From Actinomycetes bacterium (GTDB lineage: Bacteria; Actinomycetota; Actinomycetes; Propionibacteriales; Propionibacteriaceae), in NCBI GenBank assembly GCA_023432725.1, contig JAEYUH010000161.1, forward strand, positions 1 through 7,456: a stretch of DNA of 7,456 bases. The letters run 5' to 3'. The notes below the pieces were generated by a model. It ran no database searches. It saw only the letters and a program-made list of their open reading frames with translations, and was not told the DNA's origin. The position numbers and the translations under genes are program-made. Below, piece by piece: positions 1-7,228 of this stretch (its first letter is position 1; each line of letters begins with the position of its first letter).

Positions 1-685
1 CCCACCACGTCAGGACGAGCAGGCCGATAGCGATCAGGGTCAGCACGTTCACGCCGGTGGTCATCGCCCGCAGGATGCCGGCGAGGTCGGCCACCAGCCA
101 GGTGCCGGACCGCTCGAGTTGCAGCAGCGGCTCCCCCAGCCCTGGGACGCTGAGGTCGGGCAGCTTGGCCAGGGGTGGCGACTGGGTGGGTCCGCCGCCG
201 GGCAGCCCACTGAACGTGCGGGCCGCCAGGTAGGCGCCGGCACCGGCGCCCAGCAGGTTCACCGCGACACCGGAGACGATGTGGTCGACGCCGAACACGA
301 CAGTGGCAAGGGCGTGGACGGCACCGCCCAGCATTCCCATGGCTGCCGCACCGAGGATGCCCGCCCACGGCCCGTAGTGGAAGCCGAAGAAGCCGGCCCC
401 CCAGGTACCGAGGATCATCATGCCCTCGAGGCCGATGTTGACCACGCCGGCCCGCTCCGACCACAACCCGCCAAGGCCGGCCAGCGCGAGCGGTACCGCC
501 AGGCCGATGGCTGCGGCCAGCGCCCCCGAGGAGACCATGTCGTTGGCCCCGGTCAGGACGCGGACCGTGGCGACCACCAGCAGGGAGCCGATGATCATCG
601 ACGGCCAGTACCACCGCGGCCGGTGGCGCCGGACCGGGGGAAGCGTCTGGGACAGTCCGCCGGCGACGCCGAGGTCGGCGCTCAT
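1..685 (-). CDS. Nucleoside ABC transporter permease 2 (NupQ/BPD_transp_2 type), 3' end outside window
   Basis: Inner-membrane permease, second of the pair forming the channel of a BMP-type nucleoside importer. Translating the minus strand from the ATG at 685-683 gives 228 uninterrupted residues, and the frame is still open at the left edge, so the C-terminal part is missing. After a basic N-terminus (RRHRPRWYW, about residues 19-27) come hydrophobic segments near 29-41, 54-74, 86-100, 106-131, 139-155 and 211-228. The motif GLWSERAGVVNIGLEG (about residues 73-88) is the family hallmark, equivalent to the LFNIG..GQ segment of the partner permease. The Pro/Gly-rich stretch at about 160-185 looks like an extended extracytoplasmic loop. 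The start is firm: GGAGGT lies about 6 nt upstream, and the ATG overlaps the previous gene's stop as ATGA, which indicates translational coupling. Family assignment is strong. The exact nucleoside specificity cannot be read from the sequence. Confidence 0.93.
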   Translation of the reverse strand, partial: MSADLGVAGGLSQTLPPVRRHRPRWYWPSMIIGSLLVVATVRVLTGANDMVSSGALAAAIGLAVPLALAGLGGLWSERAGVVNIGLEGMMILGTWGAGFFGFHYGPWAGILGAAAMGMLGGAVHALATVVFGVDHIVSGVAVNLLGAGAGAYLAARTFSGLPGGGPTQSPPLAKLPDLSVPGLGEPLLQLERSGTWLVADLAGILRAMTTGVNVLTLIAIGLLVLTWW

Positions 686-1797
686 GCCGCCACCTCCTCG
701 GAGGTCCGGGACTGGGCTGCGAGTTCGCGAGCCACCCGGCGCTGCTCGATGGTCTGCTCGGCCCTGCGGACCAGCTCGTAGGCGACCACGACGCTCAGCA
801 CGATGATCCCCTGGATCACCAGCACGAGCCGGTCGGAGACACCGGCGCCGATCTGCAGGCCGTTGCTGAGCTGGTTGAGGTAGCCCCACAGCACGGCGGC
901 GATGGCCATCCCGATGGCGTTGTTGCGTCCCAGCAGGGCGACCGCGATCCCGGCGAACCCGAGTCCCGCCTGGAAGGTGTCGCCGTAGGCGTAGTCCTGG
1001 CCGAACAGCAGCGGCATGCCGACCAGGCCCGCCACGGCGCCCGACATCACCATCGAGATGACCACCATCCGCTTCACCCGCACCCCGCTGGCCAGGGCCG
1101 CGGACTCCGAGGCGCCGGCTGCCCGCAGATCGAAGCCGAACCGGGTCTTGCCGACGATGAACCAGTAGGCGATGCCGACAAGGATCGCCAGGACTATCAG
1201 CCCGTAGATCTTGTTGGGAGTGTTCAGGAAGCTGTCCACAGGGATGCCGGGGACTCGTGAGCTCTCCGGGATCGGCTGGGTGCTGGTGACGTTGCTGCCC
1301 TCGATCTTGACCGCTGTCTGGCGCAGGAAGTAGGCGACAAGGTAGGTGGCGATGTAGTTCAGCATGATCGTCGAGATCACCTCGGAGACGCCACGACCCA
1401 CCTTGAGGACGCCGGCGATCAGCGACCACAGGGCGCCGGTGACCATCGCGACCAGGATCGAGACGATGATGTTCAGCCAGCCCGGGAGGAACGCCTGGCC
1501 GGCGAACAGCGCCGCGGCGAACGAGGCGACCCGGTACTGACCGTCGACACCGATGTTGAACAGGTTCATCCGGAAGCCGATCGCCACCGCGACCGCGGAC
1601 AGGTAGAGGACTGTCGCCTCGTTGATGATCGCCACCACCTGGCGGGGTAGCGGAACCTTGAACAGCACAGCCCACACGTCGAGCACCGGATCGCCGGCAG
1701 CCAGCAGGATCACCGTGGTGAGCGCGAGGGCGGACACCATCGCGACCACCGGTGCCGCCGCGCCGAGCGCGATCCGGGTCCAGTCGAACCGTTTCAT
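682..1797 (-). CDS. Nucleoside ABC transporter permease 1 (NupP/BPD_transp_2 type)
   Basis: Membrane permease of 371 residues, partner of the permease that follows it. Hydrophobic segments lie near residues 9-35, 62-80, 90-105, 108-131, 140-158, 197-215, 245-265, 277-290, 293-310 and 323-341, consistent with an 8-10 helix importer channel. The segment GFRMNLFNIGVDGQ (74-87) is the family signature. GFDLRAAGASESAALASG (221-238), just before a hydrophobic pair, resembles the cytoplasmic coupling loop (EAA-like) that docks on the ATPase. The tail from about 343 is charged (RRAEQTIEQRRVARE) and probably cytoplasmic. The ATG at 1797-1795 overlaps the ATPase stop as ATGA and is preceded by GAGGTGGAGG. 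Gene order ATPase-permease-permease matches the Bacillus subtilis nupNOPQ guanosine importer and the streptococcal BMP-linked nucleoside importers (known from the family). Substrate is inferred to be nucleosides. Confidence 0.95.
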   Translation of the reverse strand: MKRFDWTRIALGAAAPVVAMVSALALTTVILLAAGDPVLDVWAVLFKVPLPRQVVAIINEATVLYLSAVAVAIGFRMNLFNIGVDGQYRVASFAAALFAGQAFLPGWLNIIVSILVAMVTGALWSLIAGVLKVGRGVSEVISTIMLNYIATYLVAYFLRQTAVKIEGSNVTSTQPIPESSRVPGIPVDSFLNTPNKIYGLIVLAILVGIAYWFIVGKTRFGFDLRAAGASESAALASGVRVKRMVVISMVMSGAVAGLVGMPLLFGQDYAYGDTFQAGLGFAGIAVALLGRNNAIGMAIAAVLWGYLNQLSNGLQIGAGVSDRLVLVIQGIIVLSVVVAYELVRRAEQTIEQRRVARELAAQSRTSEEVAA

Positions 1798-3374
1798 GCC
1801 TCCACCTCGGTTCCGCTCGTTGCCCGCCGGGGTGCCGCGGCCGGTTCCTCGTTACTCGCTCCCGTCATCGCCGCGCCCAGTTCCTCGCGGGTCACGGTGT
1901 CGGGGTCGAAGCTGGCGGCGATCCGGCCGCGCAGGATGACGTGCAGGGTGTCGGACAGGCCGACGAGCTCCTCGAGATCGGCCGAGATCAGCAGGACCCC
2001 CATCCCGGCTCGGCGGGCCTCCTTGATCAGGTCCCAGATGGCTGCCTGCGCCCCGACATCGACCCCACGGGTCGGGTGGGCTGCCAGCAGCACGCGCGGG
2101 GTATGGCTCATCTCGCGACCCACGATCAGCTTCTGCTGGTTGCCGCCGGACAGCGAGCCCGCGGTGACATGGATCGACGGGGTGCGGACGTCGTACTCCG
2201 CGACGATCTGGGTGGTGCTCTTCTGCGCCCCTGCCGCGTCGATCAGGGGACCCTTGCTGCCGGGAGCCTGGGTCTGGTGGCCGAGGATGACGTTCTCCCA
2301 CAGCGGCGCTTCGAGCAGCAGGCCGTGGCGGTGGCGGTCCTCGGGGATGAATCCGACGCCTGCCTCCCTGACCCGGCGGGTGTCCCAGCTGGTGATGTCC
2401 TCGCCGTCGAGCAGGATCACTCCCGAGCTGGGTCGGCGCATGCCCATCACGACGTCGACCAGCTGGGCCTGGCCGTTGCCCTCGACCCCTGCGATCCCGA
2501 CCACCTCACCCGCGTGGACGACGATGTCGATGTCGTCGAGCTGGCGTGGCCCGCCGGGCGTCGCCAGGCCGACCCCGCGGAACTCGAGCACGGTGGTGTC
2601 GGTGACCGTCGACTCCTCGGTCGCCGGGGTGGGCAGTTCGGAGCCGACCATCAGTTCGGCGAGTTGCCGCGCGGTGACCTGTCCCGGGTCGACAGCGGCG
2701 ACGGTGGTGCCGCGGCGGATCACGGTGATGTCGTCGGCGACGCTCAGCACCTCGTCGAGCTTGTGCGAGATGAAGATCACCGTCAGGCCCTCGGCCTTCA
2801 GTTCCTTGAGGTGGCCGAAGAGGTCGGTCACCTCCTGCGGCACGAGGACGGCCGTCGGTTCGTCGAGGATGAGGATGCGCGCACCCCGGTAGAGCACCTT
2901 GAGGATCTCGATCCGCTGCCGGTCGCCGACCCCGAGGTCGGCCACCAGCGCATCGGGGTCGATGGCCATGCCGTACTCGTGGCCGATCTCACGGATCCTG
3001 CTGCGGGCGCGCTCCCCGATGCCGTGGAGCTTCTCGGCTCCCAACACGACGTTCTCGAGGACGGTGAGGTTGTCGGCCAGCATGAAGTGCTGGAACACCA
3101 TCCCGATGCCCGCCTGGATCGCCCGCTGGGGACTGGTCAGGACGGTCTCGACGCCGTTGACCCTGATGGTTCCCTCGTCGGGCAGCTGGACGCCGTAGAG
3201 GATCTTCATCAGCGTCGACTTGCCGGCGCCGTTCTCGCCCACTATCGCGTGGATGGTGCCGCGCCGCACGGCGAGTGAGATGTCCTTGTTGGCGACGACT
3301 CCGGGGAACCGCTTGGTGATGCCCTGCAGTTCCACAGCCAGTGGTTCGCTCGAGTTCACCTCGGCACTGGACAT
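1794..3374 (-). CDS. Nucleoside ABC transporter ATP-binding protein, two fused nucleotide-binding domains
   Basis: Cytoplasmic ATPase (526 residues) that energises the importer. It has tandem ABC domains, as in sugar and nucleoside importers of the RbsA/NupO type. Domain 1: Walker A GENGAGKST (46-54), Q-loop Q95, variant signature LGVGDRQR (147-154), Walker B ILILDEP (167-173), H-loop SHKLDEV (203-209). Domain 2: degenerate P-loop GVEGNGQAQ (296-304) without the GKS/T, canonical signature LSGGNQQK (408-415), Walker B replaced by LLAAHPTRGVDVG (429-441), and ISADLEE (463-469) without the switch His. This asymmetry is usual in the family: one composite site hydrolyses ATP while the other is degenerate. 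The ATG at 3374-3372 has AGGGA 6 nt upstream. The gene is separated from the receptor gene by 145 nt containing three hairpins, but is tightly overlapped with the downstream permease. The Pro/Ala-rich C-terminal tail (about 508-526) is variable sequence. Confidence 0.96.
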   Translation of the reverse strand: MSSAEVNSSEPLAVELQGITKRFPGVVANKDISLAVRRGTIHAIVGENGAGKSTLMKILYGVQLPDEGTIRVNGVETVLTSPQRAIQAGIGMVFQHFMLADNLTVLENVVLGAEKLHGIGERARSRIREIGHEYGMAIDPDALVADLGVGDRQRIEILKVLYRGARILILDEPTAVLVPQEVTDLFGHLKELKAEGLTVIFISHKLDEVLSVADDITVIRRGTTVAAVDPGQVTARQLAELMVGSELPTPATEESTVTDTTVLEFRGVGLATPGGPRQLDDIDIVVHAGEVVGIAGVEGNGQAQLVDVVMGMRRPSSGVILLDGEDITSWDTRRVREAGVGFIPEDRHRHGLLLEAPLWENVILGHQTQAPGSKGPLIDAAGAQKSTTQIVAEYDVRTPSIHVTAGSLSGGNQQKLIVGREMSHTPRVLLAAHPTRGVDVGAQAAIWDLIKEARRAGMGVLLISADLEELVGLSDTLHVILRGRIAASFDPDTVTREELGAAMTGASNEEPAAAPRRATSGTEVEA

Positions 3375-3519: not shown

Positions 3520-4599
3520 TCAGGAGACCGTGTCGGGAACGACGATCGAGCCGGCGATGATCTGGTCGCGCAGCGCGTCCAGGTCGGCCTTGATGTCGTC
3601 CACGTTGCCGCCGGTGGTGGAGTAGCCCACACCGTCAGCCTTGAGGTCGAAGACCTTCGGGCCCGCCTGGAAGGCGCCGTCGTGCACGGACTTGATGAAG
3701 TCGTACACGCCGACATCCACGCGCTTCAGCATCGAGGTGAGGATGACGCTGCGAACGTCCTCGGCGGCGGTCAGGGCCTGGTCGGAGTCGACACCGATGG
3801 CCCAGCCACCGGCCTCCTTGGCGGCGGTGAAGACGCCGCCACCCGAGCCACCCGCGGCGTGGTACACGATGTCCGCGCCGGCCTGGAACATGCCGTCAGC
3901 GGCGGTCTTGCCCTTGGCCGGGTCACCGAAGCCGCTGAAGTCCGGGGGCTGGGTGAGGTAGGTGGAGTCGATCTTGATGTCGGCCTTGACAGCCTTGGCC
4001 CCGGCCTCGTAGCCGGCCTGGAACTTCTTGATCAGGTCGGTCTCGACGCCACCGACGAAGCCGATGTGCCCGGTCTTGGACTTCATGGCAGCGGCAGCGC
4101 CGACCAGGAAGGAACCCTCGTGCTCGGCGAACACGATGTTCATGATGTTCTCACCGGTCGAGGCCTCCGAGGCGTCGTCCACGATGGCGAACTTGACGTC
4201 GGGGTTGGCCTTGGCGACCTCGCCGACGGAGTTGGCGTAGGCGAAGCCGACGGCCACGATGTTGGTGAAGCCGGCGTCGATCAGCTGCTGGAGCCGCTCG
4301 GTGCGGGCCGACTCGGCCTCACCGGCAACGGCGGCGACGTCCATCGCCTCGACACCGAACTCGCTGGCGGCCTTGTCCAGGCCGGCTGCGGCGGAGTCGT
4401 TGAAGGACTGGTCACCACGACCGCCGACATCGAAGGCCATACCGACCTTGATCTTGGCCTCGGGCGCCGGGGCCTCGGAGGTGGCGCCGCCGGTGGTGGT
4501 GGTGGGCGCGGGGGAAGCTGCTGGTGTGCCCGCACAGCCAGCCAGACTCAGGGTGGCTGCGGTGGCTGCCGCGATAGCGATCTTCATCACCTGTCGCAC
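3520..4599 (-). CDS. BMP/PnrA-family nucleoside-binding lipoprotein (substrate receptor of ABC importer)
   Basis: Extracytoplasmic substrate receptor of 359 residues, anchored to the membrane by lipid. The N-terminus MRQVMKIAIAAATAATLSLAGC is a lipoprotein signal peptide with lipobox LAGC and lipidated Cys22, followed by a Thr/Ala/Pro-rich linker (about 23-48). The mature domain begins KVGMAFDVGGRGDQSFND (51-68); the DxSFND segment is the hallmark of the BMP family, where the Phe stacks on the base in PnrA. IGVDSDQ (268-274) holds the conserved Asp271 equivalent to the ribose-contacting Asp of PnrA (family knowledge). Other family segments are QQLIDAGFTNIVAVGF (104-119), GFVGGVE (180-186) and DIVYHAAGGSGGGVF (243-257). 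The start is GTG at 4599-4597, because AAAGGAG sits exactly 6 nt upstream; the internal ATG at codon 5 would be too far from it. It is the first gene of the minus-strand operon. Purine or pyrimidine nucleosides are the likely ligands; the precise ligand is not determinable here. Confidence 0.95.
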   Translation of the reverse strand: MRQVMKIAIAAATAATLSLAGCAGTPAASPAPTTTTGGATSEAPAPEAKIKVGMAFDVGGRGDQSFNDSAAAGLDKAASEFGVEAMDVAAVAGEAESARTERLQQLIDAGFTNIVAVGFAYANSVGEVAKANPDVKFAIVDDASEASTGENIMNIVFAEHEGSFLVGAAAAMKSKTGHIGFVGGVETDLIKKFQAGYEAGAKAVKADIKIDSTYLTQPPDFSGFGDPAKGKTAADGMFQAGADIVYHAAGGSGGGVFTAAKEAGGWAIGVDSDQALTAAEDVRSVILTSMLKRVDVGVYDFIKSVHDGAFQAGPKVFDLKADGVGYSTTGGNVDDIKADLDALRDQIIAGSIVVPDTVS

Positions 4600-4605
4600 G
4601 AATGT

Positions 4606-4612
4606 CTCCTTT
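4606..4612 (-). promoter_or_regulatory. Strong Shine-Dalgarno (AAAGGAG) fixing the GTG start of the receptor gene
   Basis: The minus strand reads AAAGGAG with a 6-nt gap to GTG (4599-4597). This selects the GTG rather than the in-frame ATG four codons later. Confidence 0.8.
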
Positions 4613-4647
4613 GGAACGAGAGTGCGGAGTTGTGCCCCGCGCGAGGA

Positions 4648-4653
4648 ACTTTA
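4648..4653 (-). promoter_or_regulatory. Candidate -10 element of the transporter operon promoter
   Basis: The minus strand reads TAAAGT, matching the actinobacterial TANNNT consensus. It predicts transcription starting near 4641 and a leader of about 42 nt that contains the AAAGGAG site. No good -35 hexamer is seen at the 17-nt position. A more A/T-rich stretch at 4691-4720 could hold an alternative upstream promoter. Confidence 0.4.
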
Positions 4654-4699
4654 TCCCTCTGCGGGGAATCCCACCTGCCGGGAGGGCCCGATGCAACCA

Positions 4700-4720
4700 A
4701 CCGTTATCCAAAAGTAAGGT
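4700..4720. promoter_or_regulatory. Imperfect dyad in the divergent control region (possible operator)
   Basis: ACCGTTA and TAAGGT flank an 8-nt centre (ACC-g-TTA...TAA-GGT, one bulged base). It lies in the most A/T-rich part of the 198-nt region between the divergent receptor and yjjI genes, so a shared regulator could act on both. No known operator was recognised. This is a weak, position-based suggestion. Confidence 0.25.
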
Positions 4721-4785
4721 CCGGGCGCCTCCGGCTCTCCATCCGCCACCTTCGCCGTGTGGGGAATTGCGCCCGCCGTCAGCGG

Positions 4786-4797
4786 TAGGCTGACTCT
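4786..4797 (+). promoter_or_regulatory. yjjI: Candidate -10 (TAGGCT) giving a leaderless yjjI transcript
   Basis: TAGGCT (4786-4791) fits TANNNT, and its last T lies at -7 relative to the GTG at 4798. Transcription would therefore begin at the start codon itself. No convincing Shine-Dalgarno lies upstream (only GGTAGG), which agrees with leaderless translation. The -35 region is poorly matched. Confidence 0.5.
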
Positions 4798-6351
4798 GTG
4801 GACGCATTGCAACTCGCCGTCGACGCCGAGGCGATCCTCACCAGCCCGGCGCTCGGGTACGACCAGAAGCTCCGGCAGCTCGCCGGCCTCGCCACCAGCG
4901 CACTCCCCTACCCCGCGTTGTCACCCCAGGCCCGGCAGGCCCTGGCCGAACGCGTGATCTGCGACATGTACGAGGGGCATCGCCCCTTCACGCCGCGCTA
5001 CGTGCTGCCGGACTACGCCAAAGCGCTGCGCCAGGGCGTCCGGCACCTCGAACTCGAACCGCCGGCCGACCTCGACGACGCGCTGAGCTTCCTCACCGTC
5101 CTGTACGGCCACGTCCCCTCGGTCACCACCTACCCCGTCTACCTCGGCGACCTGGACAGCCTGCTCGAGCCCTACGTGCCCGCGTCCATGAAGGACGAGG
5201 AACTGGACGCGCGGCTGCGCAGGTTCTGGCTCCAGCTCGACAGGTTGCTCCCCGACGCCTTTGTGCACGCCAACCTCGGCCCGCGCGACGGCAGGGTGGT
5301 GCGCTCGATCCTGCGCGTGGAGCGGTCGCTGCGCCAGGTGGTGCCGAACCTGACCCTCAAGGTCGACCCCGGGCTGACCCCCGACGACCTCGTGCTGGAC
5401 GCGGTGAGGACCGTCTTCGAGACCGGCAAGCCGCACTTCGCCAACCACCCGATGATGGTCGCCGACCACGGCGAGGAGTACGCAGTGGTGAGCTGCTACA
5501 ACTCGCTGAAGGTGCGCGGCGGCGCCCACTCGCTGGTCCGGCTCAACCTCAAGGAGGCGGCGCTGCGCCACACCGGCGACGCGGCGTCCTTCCTCGCCGA
5601 CGCGCTGCCGCACTGGGTGGAGCTGACCTGCGAACTGGGCGAGGCGCGGATCCGCTCCCTCGTGGAGCAGCAGGGCTTCTTCGACCACCACTTCCTGGCC
5701 ACCGAGGGCCTGGTCGACCTGGACAGGTTCTCGCTGATGTTCGGTGTCTTCGGGCTGGCGGAGGCGACGAACCTGCTGCTCGAGCGGGCAGAGACTCCGG
5801 GCCGCTACGGCCACGACGAGACGGCGAACTCCCTCGCCCTGCAGCTCACCACCCGCCTGGCCGAACTGGTGGCGCGGCGTCCGCTGCCGTACTGCGACGG
5901 GGGCGGTGGCTACGCCTACCTGCACTCCCAAAGCGGGATCGACCTCGACCTGGACGTCACCGCGGGGACCCGGATCCCGATCGGCGAGGAGCCGGGGATG
6001 CGTGCCCATATCGCGGTGTGCGCGCCGCACCACAAGCTGTTCCCGGCCGGGATCTCCGACATCTTCCACGTCGACGACACCGCGGTCGGCAACCCGCAGG
6101 CGATGGTGGACATCATCAAGGGGGCGCTCCGGGCAGGGATGCGCGACTTCACCTTCAACCTCGACTCCAACGAGTTCATCAGGATCACCGGCTATCTGGT
6201 GCGCAAGTCCGACCTCGTGGGGATCGACGAGCACGGCGCGCGGCATTCCAGCGACTACCTCGCGGCGACCGCGGAGCAGAACCACACAGTGACCACGCGG
6301 GCCGTCAAGCGCGTCACGGCGGTCGAACTCGCGCCCGCGGGCCGTGGCTGA
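4798..6351 (+). CDS. yjjI: YjjI-family (DUF3029) glycyl radical enzyme, substrate unknown
   Basis: A 517-residue glycyl radical enzyme, near the 516 residues of E. coli YjjI. The C-terminal motif RITGYLVRK (462-470) carries the predicted radical glycine, Gly465, in the RV(S/T)GY context of glycyl radical enzymes. This residue is converted to a radical by the activase encoded immediately downstream. Cys233, in YAVVSCYNSL (228-237), is the best candidate for the active-site thiyl Cys. Other family-like blocks are ERVICDMYEGHRPFTPRYVLP (51-71), SVTTYPVYLGDLDSLLEPY (108-126), YCDGGGGYAYLHSQSG (365-380) and CAPHHKLFPAGISDIFH (408-424). The YjjI family is much shorter than pyruvate formate-lyase or diol-dehydratase members (about 760-850 residues), and its reaction is not known to me. 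The start is GTG at 4798; the upstream -10 spacing suggests leaderless translation. The gene overlaps the activase by 8 nt. It sits divergent to a nucleoside-type importer, echoing its deo-operon neighbourhood in E. coli. It is cytoplasmic and oxygen-labile once activated. Confidence 0.93.
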   Translation: MDALQLAVDAEAILTSPALGYDQKLRQLAGLATSALPYPALSPQARQALAERVICDMYEGHRPFTPRYVLPDYAKALRQGVRHLELEPPADLDDALSFLTVLYGHVPSVTTYPVYLGDLDSLLEPYVPASMKDEELDARLRRFWLQLDRLLPDAFVHANLGPRDGRVVRSILRVERSLRQVVPNLTLKVDPGLTPDDLVLDAVRTVFETGKPHFANHPMMVADHGEEYAVVSCYNSLKVRGGAHSLVRLNLKEAALRHTGDAASFLADALPHWVELTCELGEARIRSLVEQQGFFDHHFLATEGLVDLDRFSLMFGVFGLAEATNLLLERAETPGRYGHDETANSLALQLTTRLAELVARRPLPYCDGGGGYAYLHSQSGIDLDLDVTAGTRIPIGEEPGMRAHIAVCAPHHKLFPAGISDIFHVDDTAVGNPQAMVDIIKGALRAGMRDFTFNLDSNEFIRITGYLVRKSDLVGIDEHGARHSSDYLAATAEQNHTVTTRAVKRVTAVELAPAGRG

Positions 6352-7228
6352 CCAGAGCGCCGTGCTGGCACGGGCGCGCCGTGCCCTGGTGACCGACTGG
6401 ATCGAGTTCTCGGCGGTGGACGGTCCCGGCAACCGGTTCGTGCTGTTCCTGCAGGGCTGCACCTTCGACTGCCTGGCCTGCCACAACCCGTACACCATCA
6501 ACCCGTGCATCGACTGCCTTGAGTGCGTGGCGACCTGCAGCTCGGGTGCCCTCGGGGTGGACGCCGACGGCCGGATCACCTGGGACCAGGCGCGATGCAG
6601 CGGCACCGACGCGTGCCTGGCCACCTGTCGCTACGACTCCACCCCGAAGGCTCGCCGGTTCGAGGTCGAGGAGGCCCTGACGCTGATCCGCCCGTCCGCG
6701 CCGTTCCTGTCCGGAATCACCGTCTCGGGCGGGGAGGCCACCCGTCAGGCGGTCTTCCTTCGCGAGCTCTTCCTCGCCGTCAAGGCCGACCCCGAGCTTC
6801 GCGGCCTGACCTGCTTCGTCGACACCAACGGCGACGTCAACGCCCCGATCTGGGACGTCGTCCTCGGCCCGGTCATGGACGCCGCGATGGTCGACCTGAA
6901 GTGCCTGGACAACGACATCCACCGTCTGCTCACCGGCGTCGACAACACCAAGGTGCTGGCGACGATCCGCAACCTGGCCCGGCGCGGGAAGCTGTACGAG
7001 GTGCGGCTGCTGATGCTGCCGGGCCACAACGACGCCGACGCCCTGGTCAGCCGGACCGGGGCCTGGCTGGCGGGGGTGGACCCGCGGCTGCGGGTGAAGG
7101 TGATCGGCTACCGCCACCACGGTGTCCGTCCGAGCCCCGTCCCGCTGGTGGAGCCGACGCCCGAGCAGCTGGCCCACTACCGCGACCTGCTCGCCGCCGA
7201 GGGCGACTTCGAGCTCGTCCTGGTCTGA
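6344..7228 (+). CDS. yjjW: YjjW-family glycyl radical enzyme activase (radical SAM)
   Basis: A cytoplasmic radical-SAM activase (294 residues; E. coli YjjW is about 287). It uses S-adenosylmethionine and a [4Fe-4S] cluster to abstract hydrogen from Gly465 of the YjjI protein. FSAVDGPGNRFVLFLQGC (22-39) leads into the radical-SAM motif C39-X3-C43-X2-C46. This is followed by a ferredoxin-like insert: C55-X2-C58-X2-C61-X3-C65 is a complete four-Cys motif, while the second reads C85..T88..C91-X3-C95, with Thr at the place of the usual second Cys. VSGGEA (128-133) is the GGE motif for SAM binding, and DTNG (160-163), MVDLKCLD (182-189) and LLMLPGHND (222-230) are activase-like segments. The GTG at 6344 overlaps the yjjI stop by 8 nt without a clear Shine-Dalgarno, so translation is probably coupled. 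GTG codons at 6362 and 6389 are alternative starts; nothing conserved lies before about residue 18, so the N-terminus is uncertain. Confidence 0.93.
   Translation: MADQSAVLARARRALVTDWIEFSAVDGPGNRFVLFLQGCTFDCLACHNPYTINPCIDCLECVATCSSGALGVDADGRITWDQARCSGTDACLATCRYDSTPKARRFEVEEALTLIRPSAPFLSGITVSGGEATRQAVFLRELFLAVKADPELRGLTCFVDTNGDVNAPIWDVVLGPVMDAAMVDLKCLDNDIHRLLTGVDNTKVLATIRNLARRGKLYEVRLLMLPGHNDADALVSRTGAWLAGVDPRLRVKVIGYRHHGVRPSPVPLVEPTPEQLAHYRDLLAAEGDFELVLV

What the first reader, a model, noticed from the sequence alone, without database searches (positions are those of the whole stretch)
3520..7228. Orphan glycyl radical enzyme pair YjjI/YjjW divergent from a nucleoside-type ABC importer
Seen: complete yjjI-yjjW genes lie 198 nt from, and divergent to, a BMP/PnrA-type importer operon. 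Known: in E. coli, yjjI-yjjW is adjacent to and divergent from deoCABD, the deoxyribonucleoside catabolic operon. Inference: the same enzyme pair next to nucleoside metabolism in a distant phylum suggests a functional link, such as an anaerobic step on a nucleoside, deoxyribose/ribose derivative or downstream aldehyde. The reaction of YjjI is, to my knowledge, unassigned.
Basis: partly seen in the sequence, partly recalled or inferred. Interest (0 to 1): 0.7.

Follow-up and report, generated by a model that had tools for sequence, protein, structure and literature searches.

The report
Radical enzyme tied to nucleoside breakdown
YjjI, a predicted glycyl radical enzyme of unknown reaction whose predicted fold is closest to anaerobic ribonucleotide reductase, has its gene beside nucleoside import and breakdown genes in several unrelated bacterial groups, so it likely carries out a radical step in nucleoside breakdown without oxygen.

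The parts
2..685 (-). second permease of the BMP importer, cut by the window edge
   Evidence: PF02653 hit in 2-781; gene; in relatives it is followed by cdd and add
682..1797 (-). first permease of the BMP importer
   Evidence: PF02653, 135.8 bits
1794..3374 (-). two-domain ABC ATPase of the importer
   Evidence: PF00005, 2 stretches
3520..4599 (-). BMP/PnrA-type substrate-binding lipoprotein (LAGC lipobox, read by eye)
   Evidence: PF02608 203.1 bits; similar to solved PnrA/TmpC, BmpD and BmpA; N-terminus
4702..4717 (+). conserved intergenic element CGTTATCCAAAAGTAA, candidate shared regulatory site (function inferred)
   Evidence: one exact match, 0.00 expected; exact in 6 further relatives, only in this intergenic region
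4798..6351 (+). yjjI, predicted glycyl radical enzyme; predicted thiyl Cys233, glycyl motif RITGY with Gly465
   Evidence: TIGR04040 642.1 bits; C233 in 148 and G465 in 149 of 149 relatives; NrdD-like model
6344..7228 (+). yjjW, radical SAM activase with CxxxCxxC motif (CTFDCLAC)
   Evidence: TIGR04041 302.8 bits; PF04055; motif read

Best explanation
yjjI-yjjW lies beside nucleoside import and breakdown genes in several unrelated lineages, and YjjI, whose predicted fold is closest to class III ribonucleotide reductase but which lacks that enzyme's second catalytic cysteine, is likely a catabolic glycyl radical enzyme that acts on the pentose part of imported nucleosides without oxygen. Predicted course in this organism: the BMP importer (likely nucleoside-specific) brings in nucleosides, Cdd and Add (seen in sister genomes) would deaminate them, YjjW would place a radical on Gly465 of YjjI, the radical would pass to Cys233, and the thiyl would take a hydrogen from the sugar. 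Because only one cysteine is conserved nearly throughout, a redox-neutral elimination or rearrangement is likelier than a reduction. Shown: gene content, recurrence of the linkage, residue conservation. Predicted: the fold. Inferred: substrate, reaction, regulation.
Against: 32 of 45 loci in the phylum draws show no core nucleoside gene nearby, nor do the Proteus, Vibrio, alphaproteobacterial and Acidimicrobiia loci. Loci in a draw are related, so the Fisher values overstate independence, and the draws include the centre genomes, chosen because they carry yjjI. deoC is in 101 of 121 genomes of one family, so genome-level co-occurrence with yjjI says little there (20 of 21 with versus 81 of 100 without yjjI). 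The fold preference for NrdD is not seen in every measure: query-normalised TM-scores are 0.71 for the best NrdD and also for PflD-type enzymes. N250, which aligns with an NrdD active-site Asn (role recalled), is kept in only 121 of 149 relatives. No expression or substrate data on nucleosides were found.
Confidence: 0.6

Rival explanations
1. YjjI is a true reductase: an anaerobic ribose-level cousin of ribonucleotide reductase that removes the 2'-OH of a nucleoside or ribose phosphate, feeding DeoC.
For: Closest fold is NrdD; deoC is a recurrent neighbour.
Against: The NrdD second cysteine aligns with Tyr68, Tyr in 149 of 149 relatives; the only other widespread cysteine, C55, is missing in 10 of 149; no Cys column of NrdD's C-terminal CxxC type is conserved in YjjI.
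Confidence: 0.13
2. YjjI works downstream or on the base: on the C2 aldehyde released by DeoC or a Ru1P-type aldolase, or on a nucleobase.
For: DeoC and, in L123, a MtnA-type isomerase plus class II aldolase lie beside yjjI; both routes end in a C2 aldehyde plus triose phosphate (recalled).
Against: In the 7 further loci of the window's family draw no deoC or class II aldolase hit lies near yjjI; no base-degradation gene recurs (one weak PreA-like hit, 24% identity, in L008); the predicted fold points to a ribosyl substrate.
Confidence: 0.15
3. The neighbours are accidents of gene order inherited in a few lineages; YjjI serves another anaerobic task.
For: 32 of 45 loci of the phylum draws lack nucleoside genes; label changes are far fewer than in shuffles, so linkage is inherited in clades (8 versus 20.5).
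Against: At least 7 forced label changes, different orders and strands, and different importer types (BMP, NupC) with the same enzyme pair; 0 of 35 random regions.
Confidence: 0.08
4. YjjI belongs to nitrogen assimilation or anaerobic respiration, as predicted in 2011 from co-expression with narG.
For: PMC3228777 (passages); FNR control.
Against: Co-expression with nar genes is what shared FNR control would give; no nar or nitrogen gene was recognised among the neighbours scanned against Pfam or NCBIfam, which are a small part of all neighbours.
Confidence: 0.04

Closest known systems
E. coli yjjI-yjjW beside deoCABD
   Same: Same enzyme pair, order and overlap; divergent from nucleoside genes
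   Different: Neighbour operon is deoCABD in E. coli; a BMP importer, then cdd and add in relatives, here. The YjjI proteins are 47% identical
Class III ribonucleotide reductase NrdD
   Different: 517 versus 712 aa (E. coli); second catalytic Cys is Tyr68; NrdD C-terminal CxxC cysteines not conserved; genes recurrently beside catabolic genes
PFL-type glycyl radical enzymes (PFL, glycerol and propanediol dehydratases, CutC)
   Same: Same barrel fold; thiyl Cys plus glycyl radical site (active-site roles recalled)
   Different: Lower Z among the rows shown (at most 26.2) though similar query-normalised TM (0.71 for PflD); chains of about 750-840 aa; the C-x-E motif of the eliminases (recalled) reads C-Y-N here
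PnrA/BmpD/BmpA nucleoside-binding proteins
   Same: PF02608; phmmer E 3.7e-39 to PnrA/TmpC, 9.5e-35 to BmpD, 2.3e-39 to BmpA; best hit is 7x0r 'Lbp', 2.4e-55; BmpD binds adenosine and inosine (PMC7093131, passages)
   Different: Nucleoside preference of the window protein is not known

Membership tests
YjjI family (TIGR04040 / PF11230) | curated model score | tested here: met
   642.1 bits versus 498.3; 614.9 versus 23
YjjI family (TIGR04040 / PF11230) | C-terminal glycyl motif and active-site Cys | tested here: met
   R462-T464-G465 and C233; G465 149 of 149, C233 148 of 149
YjjW activase (TIGR04041) | curated score and CxxxCxxC | tested here: met
   302.8 versus 250.2 bits; CTFDCLAC
Class III ribonucleotide reductase (NrdD) | fold of the catalytic barrel | tested here: met
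Class III ribonucleotide reductase (NrdD) | PF13597 gathering score | tested here: not met
   23.2 versus 26.2 bits; some relatives carry PF13597 as a precomputed domain
Class III ribonucleotide reductase (NrdD) | second catalytic Cys (E. coli C175; role recalled) | tested here: not met
   aligns with Tyr68, Tyr in 149 of 149
Class III ribonucleotide reductase (NrdD) | reduction of ribonucleotides | not testable with these tools
   needs purified, activated enzyme
PFL-type glycyl radical enzymes | PF02901 glycine radical domain match | tested here: inconclusive
   no match at E 0.001 for the window's YjjI, but precomputed for a number of its close relatives
PFL-type eliminases | C-x-E at the thiyl Cys (recalled) | tested here: not met
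   C233-Y234-N235; N235 in 148 of 149
BMP/PnrA nucleoside importer | PF02608 protein with ATPase and two permeases | tested here: met
   second permease cut by the edge, whole in relatives
BMP/PnrA nucleoside importer | binds and imports nucleosides | not testable with these tools
   inferred from solved relatives and from cdd/add in the operon of relatives
putative B6 importer (NF047927-NF047930) | curated score | tested here: not met
   binding protein 100.2 versus 400; ATPase 461.8 versus 670; permease 111.8 versus 400

The most novel reading that the evidence does not exclude
YjjI is a catabolic twin of ribonucleotide reductase: it starts the same 3'-hydrogen abstraction on a ribosyl unit but, having no reducing cysteine pair, ends as a ribose 2',3'-diol dehydratase (or equivalent elimination) that opens an oxygen-free route for the sugar of RNA- and DNA-derived nucleosides, pseudouridine included, in E. 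coli and across phyla.
Probability: 0.28. Interest if true: 0.9.

Novelty: new variant of a known kind. Interest (0 to 1): 0.72.

Why it matters
YjjI is carried by E. coli and, in the three phylum draws, by 20 of 299, 9 of 396 and 16 of 398 genomes, yet its NCBIfam model is still of the hypothetical kind and no solved relative was found by sequence. Tying it to nucleoside catabolism, with a predicted fold next to ribonucleotide reductase, gives a short list of substrates to test and would place RNR-type chemistry in the breakdown of nucleosides rather than in the making of DNA precursors. It also predicts an anaerobic, FNR-controlled branch beside the classic deo operon, which none of the papers seen here describes.

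Tried and rejected
Nitrogen assimilation (PMC3228777): kept as a low rival. Vitamin B6 importer: scores far below cut-off. YjjI as a plain NrdD: second Cys missing. C55 as replacement cysteine: missing in 10 of 149. Sequence search of solved structures with YjjI: one antibody chain at E 0.14, taken as chance; with its profile: none up to E 1. Genome-level co-occurrence with deoC: uninformative. Neighbours of loci without nucleoside genes: HMG-CoA reductase and a UvrA-like protein, ECF and BPD transport proteins and a PfkB kinase, U32 peptidases and P450, a two-component system, a helicase, a YtfJ protein, a chemotaxis receptor, an EAL protein, an Lhr helicase, an APH-type kinase, an ABC exporter; no common theme. 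The conserved intergenic element was not found in the rearranged L155 with up to 3 mismatches, nor exactly in L151 and L156. Caveats of the survey: the gene tables rest on a gene caller written here, while the counts rest on tblastn; one locus (L013) was called in the wrong frame, made a long branch and was dropped. In the tree, 23 rows with short flanks and no hit were left uncounted, rows over 90% identical with the same label were merged, and the window was labelled by hand. L122 has only an importer permease at its contig end and counts as a miss. The 35 random regions come from yjjI-carrying genomes of the draws whose contig was long enough, on the same contig as yjjI and more than 18 kb from it. 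Of 47 genomes with yjjI in the family of G1165, 20 were fetched. Other phyla were not surveyed: no genome handle to centre on.
Full report
What is there. The window (69% G+C) carries, on the minus strand, a BMP-type importer operon: binding lipoprotein 3520-4599, two-domain ATPase 1794-3374, permease 682-1797 and a second permease cut by the left edge; and on the plus strand yjjI 4798-6351 and yjjW 6344-7228. The 198-nt gap and divergent order are as described. Among the 120 hits listed the nearest that bear an organism name are from Propionicimonas and Propionibacteriaceae MAGs; the closest genome-contig locus (L001, Propionicimonas) is 85% identical in YjjI. No whole genome is held for the window.

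Importer. The binding protein matches PF02608 and solved binding proteins: 7x0r (Lbp, best), 6yab (a lipoprotein; pneumococcal PnrA by recall), BmpA (9q1u), PnrA/TmpC (2fqw) and BmpD (6shu). BmpD was found with adenosine bound and also binds inosine (PMC7093131, passages). The window's importer stays far below the cut-offs of the NCBIfam 'putative B6' importer models. Nucleoside import is thus likely, not shown. What lies left of the window is answered by relatives: L002 continues permease-permease into a cytidine deaminase (NF004064 122.7 bits, cut-off 74) and an adenosine deaminase (NF006847 511.4 bits, cut-off 412), and 6 of the 7 further loci of the family draw carry both cdd and add.

Survey. 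Each draw contains its centre genome, chosen because it carries yjjI. Regions of up to 9 kb on each side were fetched and scored by tblastn against a reference set made from E. coli K-12, the window, L002 and L123 (built from regions). With the same rule, a core nucleoside gene lies within 8.75 kb in Bacillota 4 of 20, Actinomycetota 3 of 9, Pseudomonadota 6 of 16, the family of L002 7 of 7 further loci, the class of G305 0 of 2 further loci: 20 of 54, against 0 of 35 random 17.5-kb regions of yjjI-carrying genomes of these draws (Fisher 8e-6). The three phylum draws alone give 13 of 45 (2e-4), without their centre genomes 12 of 42 (3e-4). Later draws: 16 of 19 fetched loci in the family of G708 and 11 of 20 in the family of G1165 (20 of 47 yjjI genomes fetched there). 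Among the other 76 loci, weighted to Enterobacterales, 28. Loci are related, so I also built a tree of 86 YjjI rows: 27 labelled with and 36 without nucleoside genes need 8 changes of label, at least 7 forced by well-supported branches, against 20.5 in shuffles: linkage is inherited within clades and has been gained or lost repeatedly. 32 of 45 loci in the phylum draws lack the genes; the link is recurrent, not universal.

Arrangements. (a) Window lineage: divergent BMP importer, then cdd and add; in L155 the order is yjjI-ATPase-permease-permease-BMP-yjjW on one strand, with 4-nt overlaps from yjjI to the second permease. (b) Family of G708 (YjjI 38-41% identical to the window's): BMP importer, deoD, deoB on one strand, psuK, psuG, yjjI, yjjW on the other, then deoC, in five loci add. 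In L264 and L265 deoD, deoB and deoC pass NCBIfam cut-offs, psuG matches PF04227 (455.6 bits) and the binding protein PF02608 (278.5 bits); the kinase stays below the pseudouridine kinase cut-off (224.6 versus 540). This island joins the E. coli neighbours (deo) and the window's neighbours (BMP importer, add) in one place. (c) Class of G305: BMP-ATPase-permease-permease upstream of yjjI-yjjW on the same strand, overlapping yjjI in L119; in L120 and L121 a glycosyltransferase-family-4-sized gene (Pfam-confirmed in L120) and a gap of over 600 nt come between; two further members of the class lack the importer there (L166, L167). (d) L123: yjjI-yjjW, MtnA-type isomerase (TIGR00512 448.6, cut-off 279), class II aldolase (PF00596; below the NCBIfam cut-offs shown), a regulator nearest the Bacillus DeoR model (310.5, cut-off 420), then the BMP importer, all on one strand. 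(e) E. coli, Citrobacter, Kluyvera: divergent deoCABD. (f) Gilliamella: deoB, deoD, nup, add, cpdB, cdd, deoA, in many ushA, then yjjI-yjjW on the same strand. (g) Providencia L063: nupC-type gene 34 nt before yjjI; the other Providencia locus (L062) has none.

Oxygen and regulation. E. coli yjjI is listed among operons directly activated by FNR (PMC3688515, passages), yjjI and yjjW are marked FNR-activated in PMC2634741 (passage), and both are in a table of the anaerobic transcriptome study of Yersinia intermedia (PMC3792023, passage). In the window lineage a 16-nt element, CGTTAYCNAAMAGTAA, lies in the divergent intergenic region: exact in the window (4702-4717) and in L001, L002, L150, L152, L153, L154 (the other five listed loci are shorter fetches of places already named), not exact in L151 and L156, absent in L155, and nowhere else in the 242 loci then held. 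It may serve both promoters; that is untested.

In print. The held library was searched for YjjI (22 papers), with YjjW, deoCABD and nucleoside, genome-neighbourhood terms, DUF3029/HI0521, glycyl radical plus nucleoside catabolism and yjjI plus thymidine, pseudouridine, deoD. I saw listings, and short passages of PMC3228777, PMC9068703, PMC3688515, PMC6643234, PMC3792023, PMC4390871, PMC11587861 and PMC2634741; none of these ties YjjI to nucleosides. Subscription papers are not held.

Verdict. Observation confirmed; the proposed functional link is supported by an independent survey; the reaction remains unassigned and is narrowed to radical chemistry on nucleoside-derived pentoses as the best bet.

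Noticed in passing
L155 2877-10524: Importer genes sit between yjjI and yjjW in one same-strand run (yjjI-ATPase-permease-permease-BMP-yjjW), a rearrangement that keeps all partners together.
   Followed up: partly
L123 57-10524: Same-strand run of yjjI, yjjW, MtnA-type isomerase, class II aldolase, DeoR-like regulator and BMP importer; recalls the DHAP-shunt or ribulose-1-phosphate route for nucleosides.
   Followed up: partly
window 4702-4717: Conserved 16-nt element in the yjjI/BMP intergenic region of relatives; candidate shared operator.
   Followed up: partly
L161 10622-11353: CRP/FNR-family regulator gene 131 nt upstream of yjjI on the same strand, next to psuK-psuG.
   Followed up: no
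L117 7543-8106: ECF transporter substrate-binding component right after yjjW in a Bacillota genome without core nucleoside genes nearby.
   Followed up: no
L125 8001-8906 (similar-sized genes in L126-L128): About 300-aa protein directly upstream of yjjI; the L125 one has no Pfam match at E 1e-5.
   Followed up: no
L152 and L153, beyond add: A second, YjjW-like radical SAM protein (28-30% identical to YjjW) lies next to add in two relatives.
   Followed up: no
G1400 C1: One genome has an intact yjjI and a second copy split into two frames.
   Followed up: no
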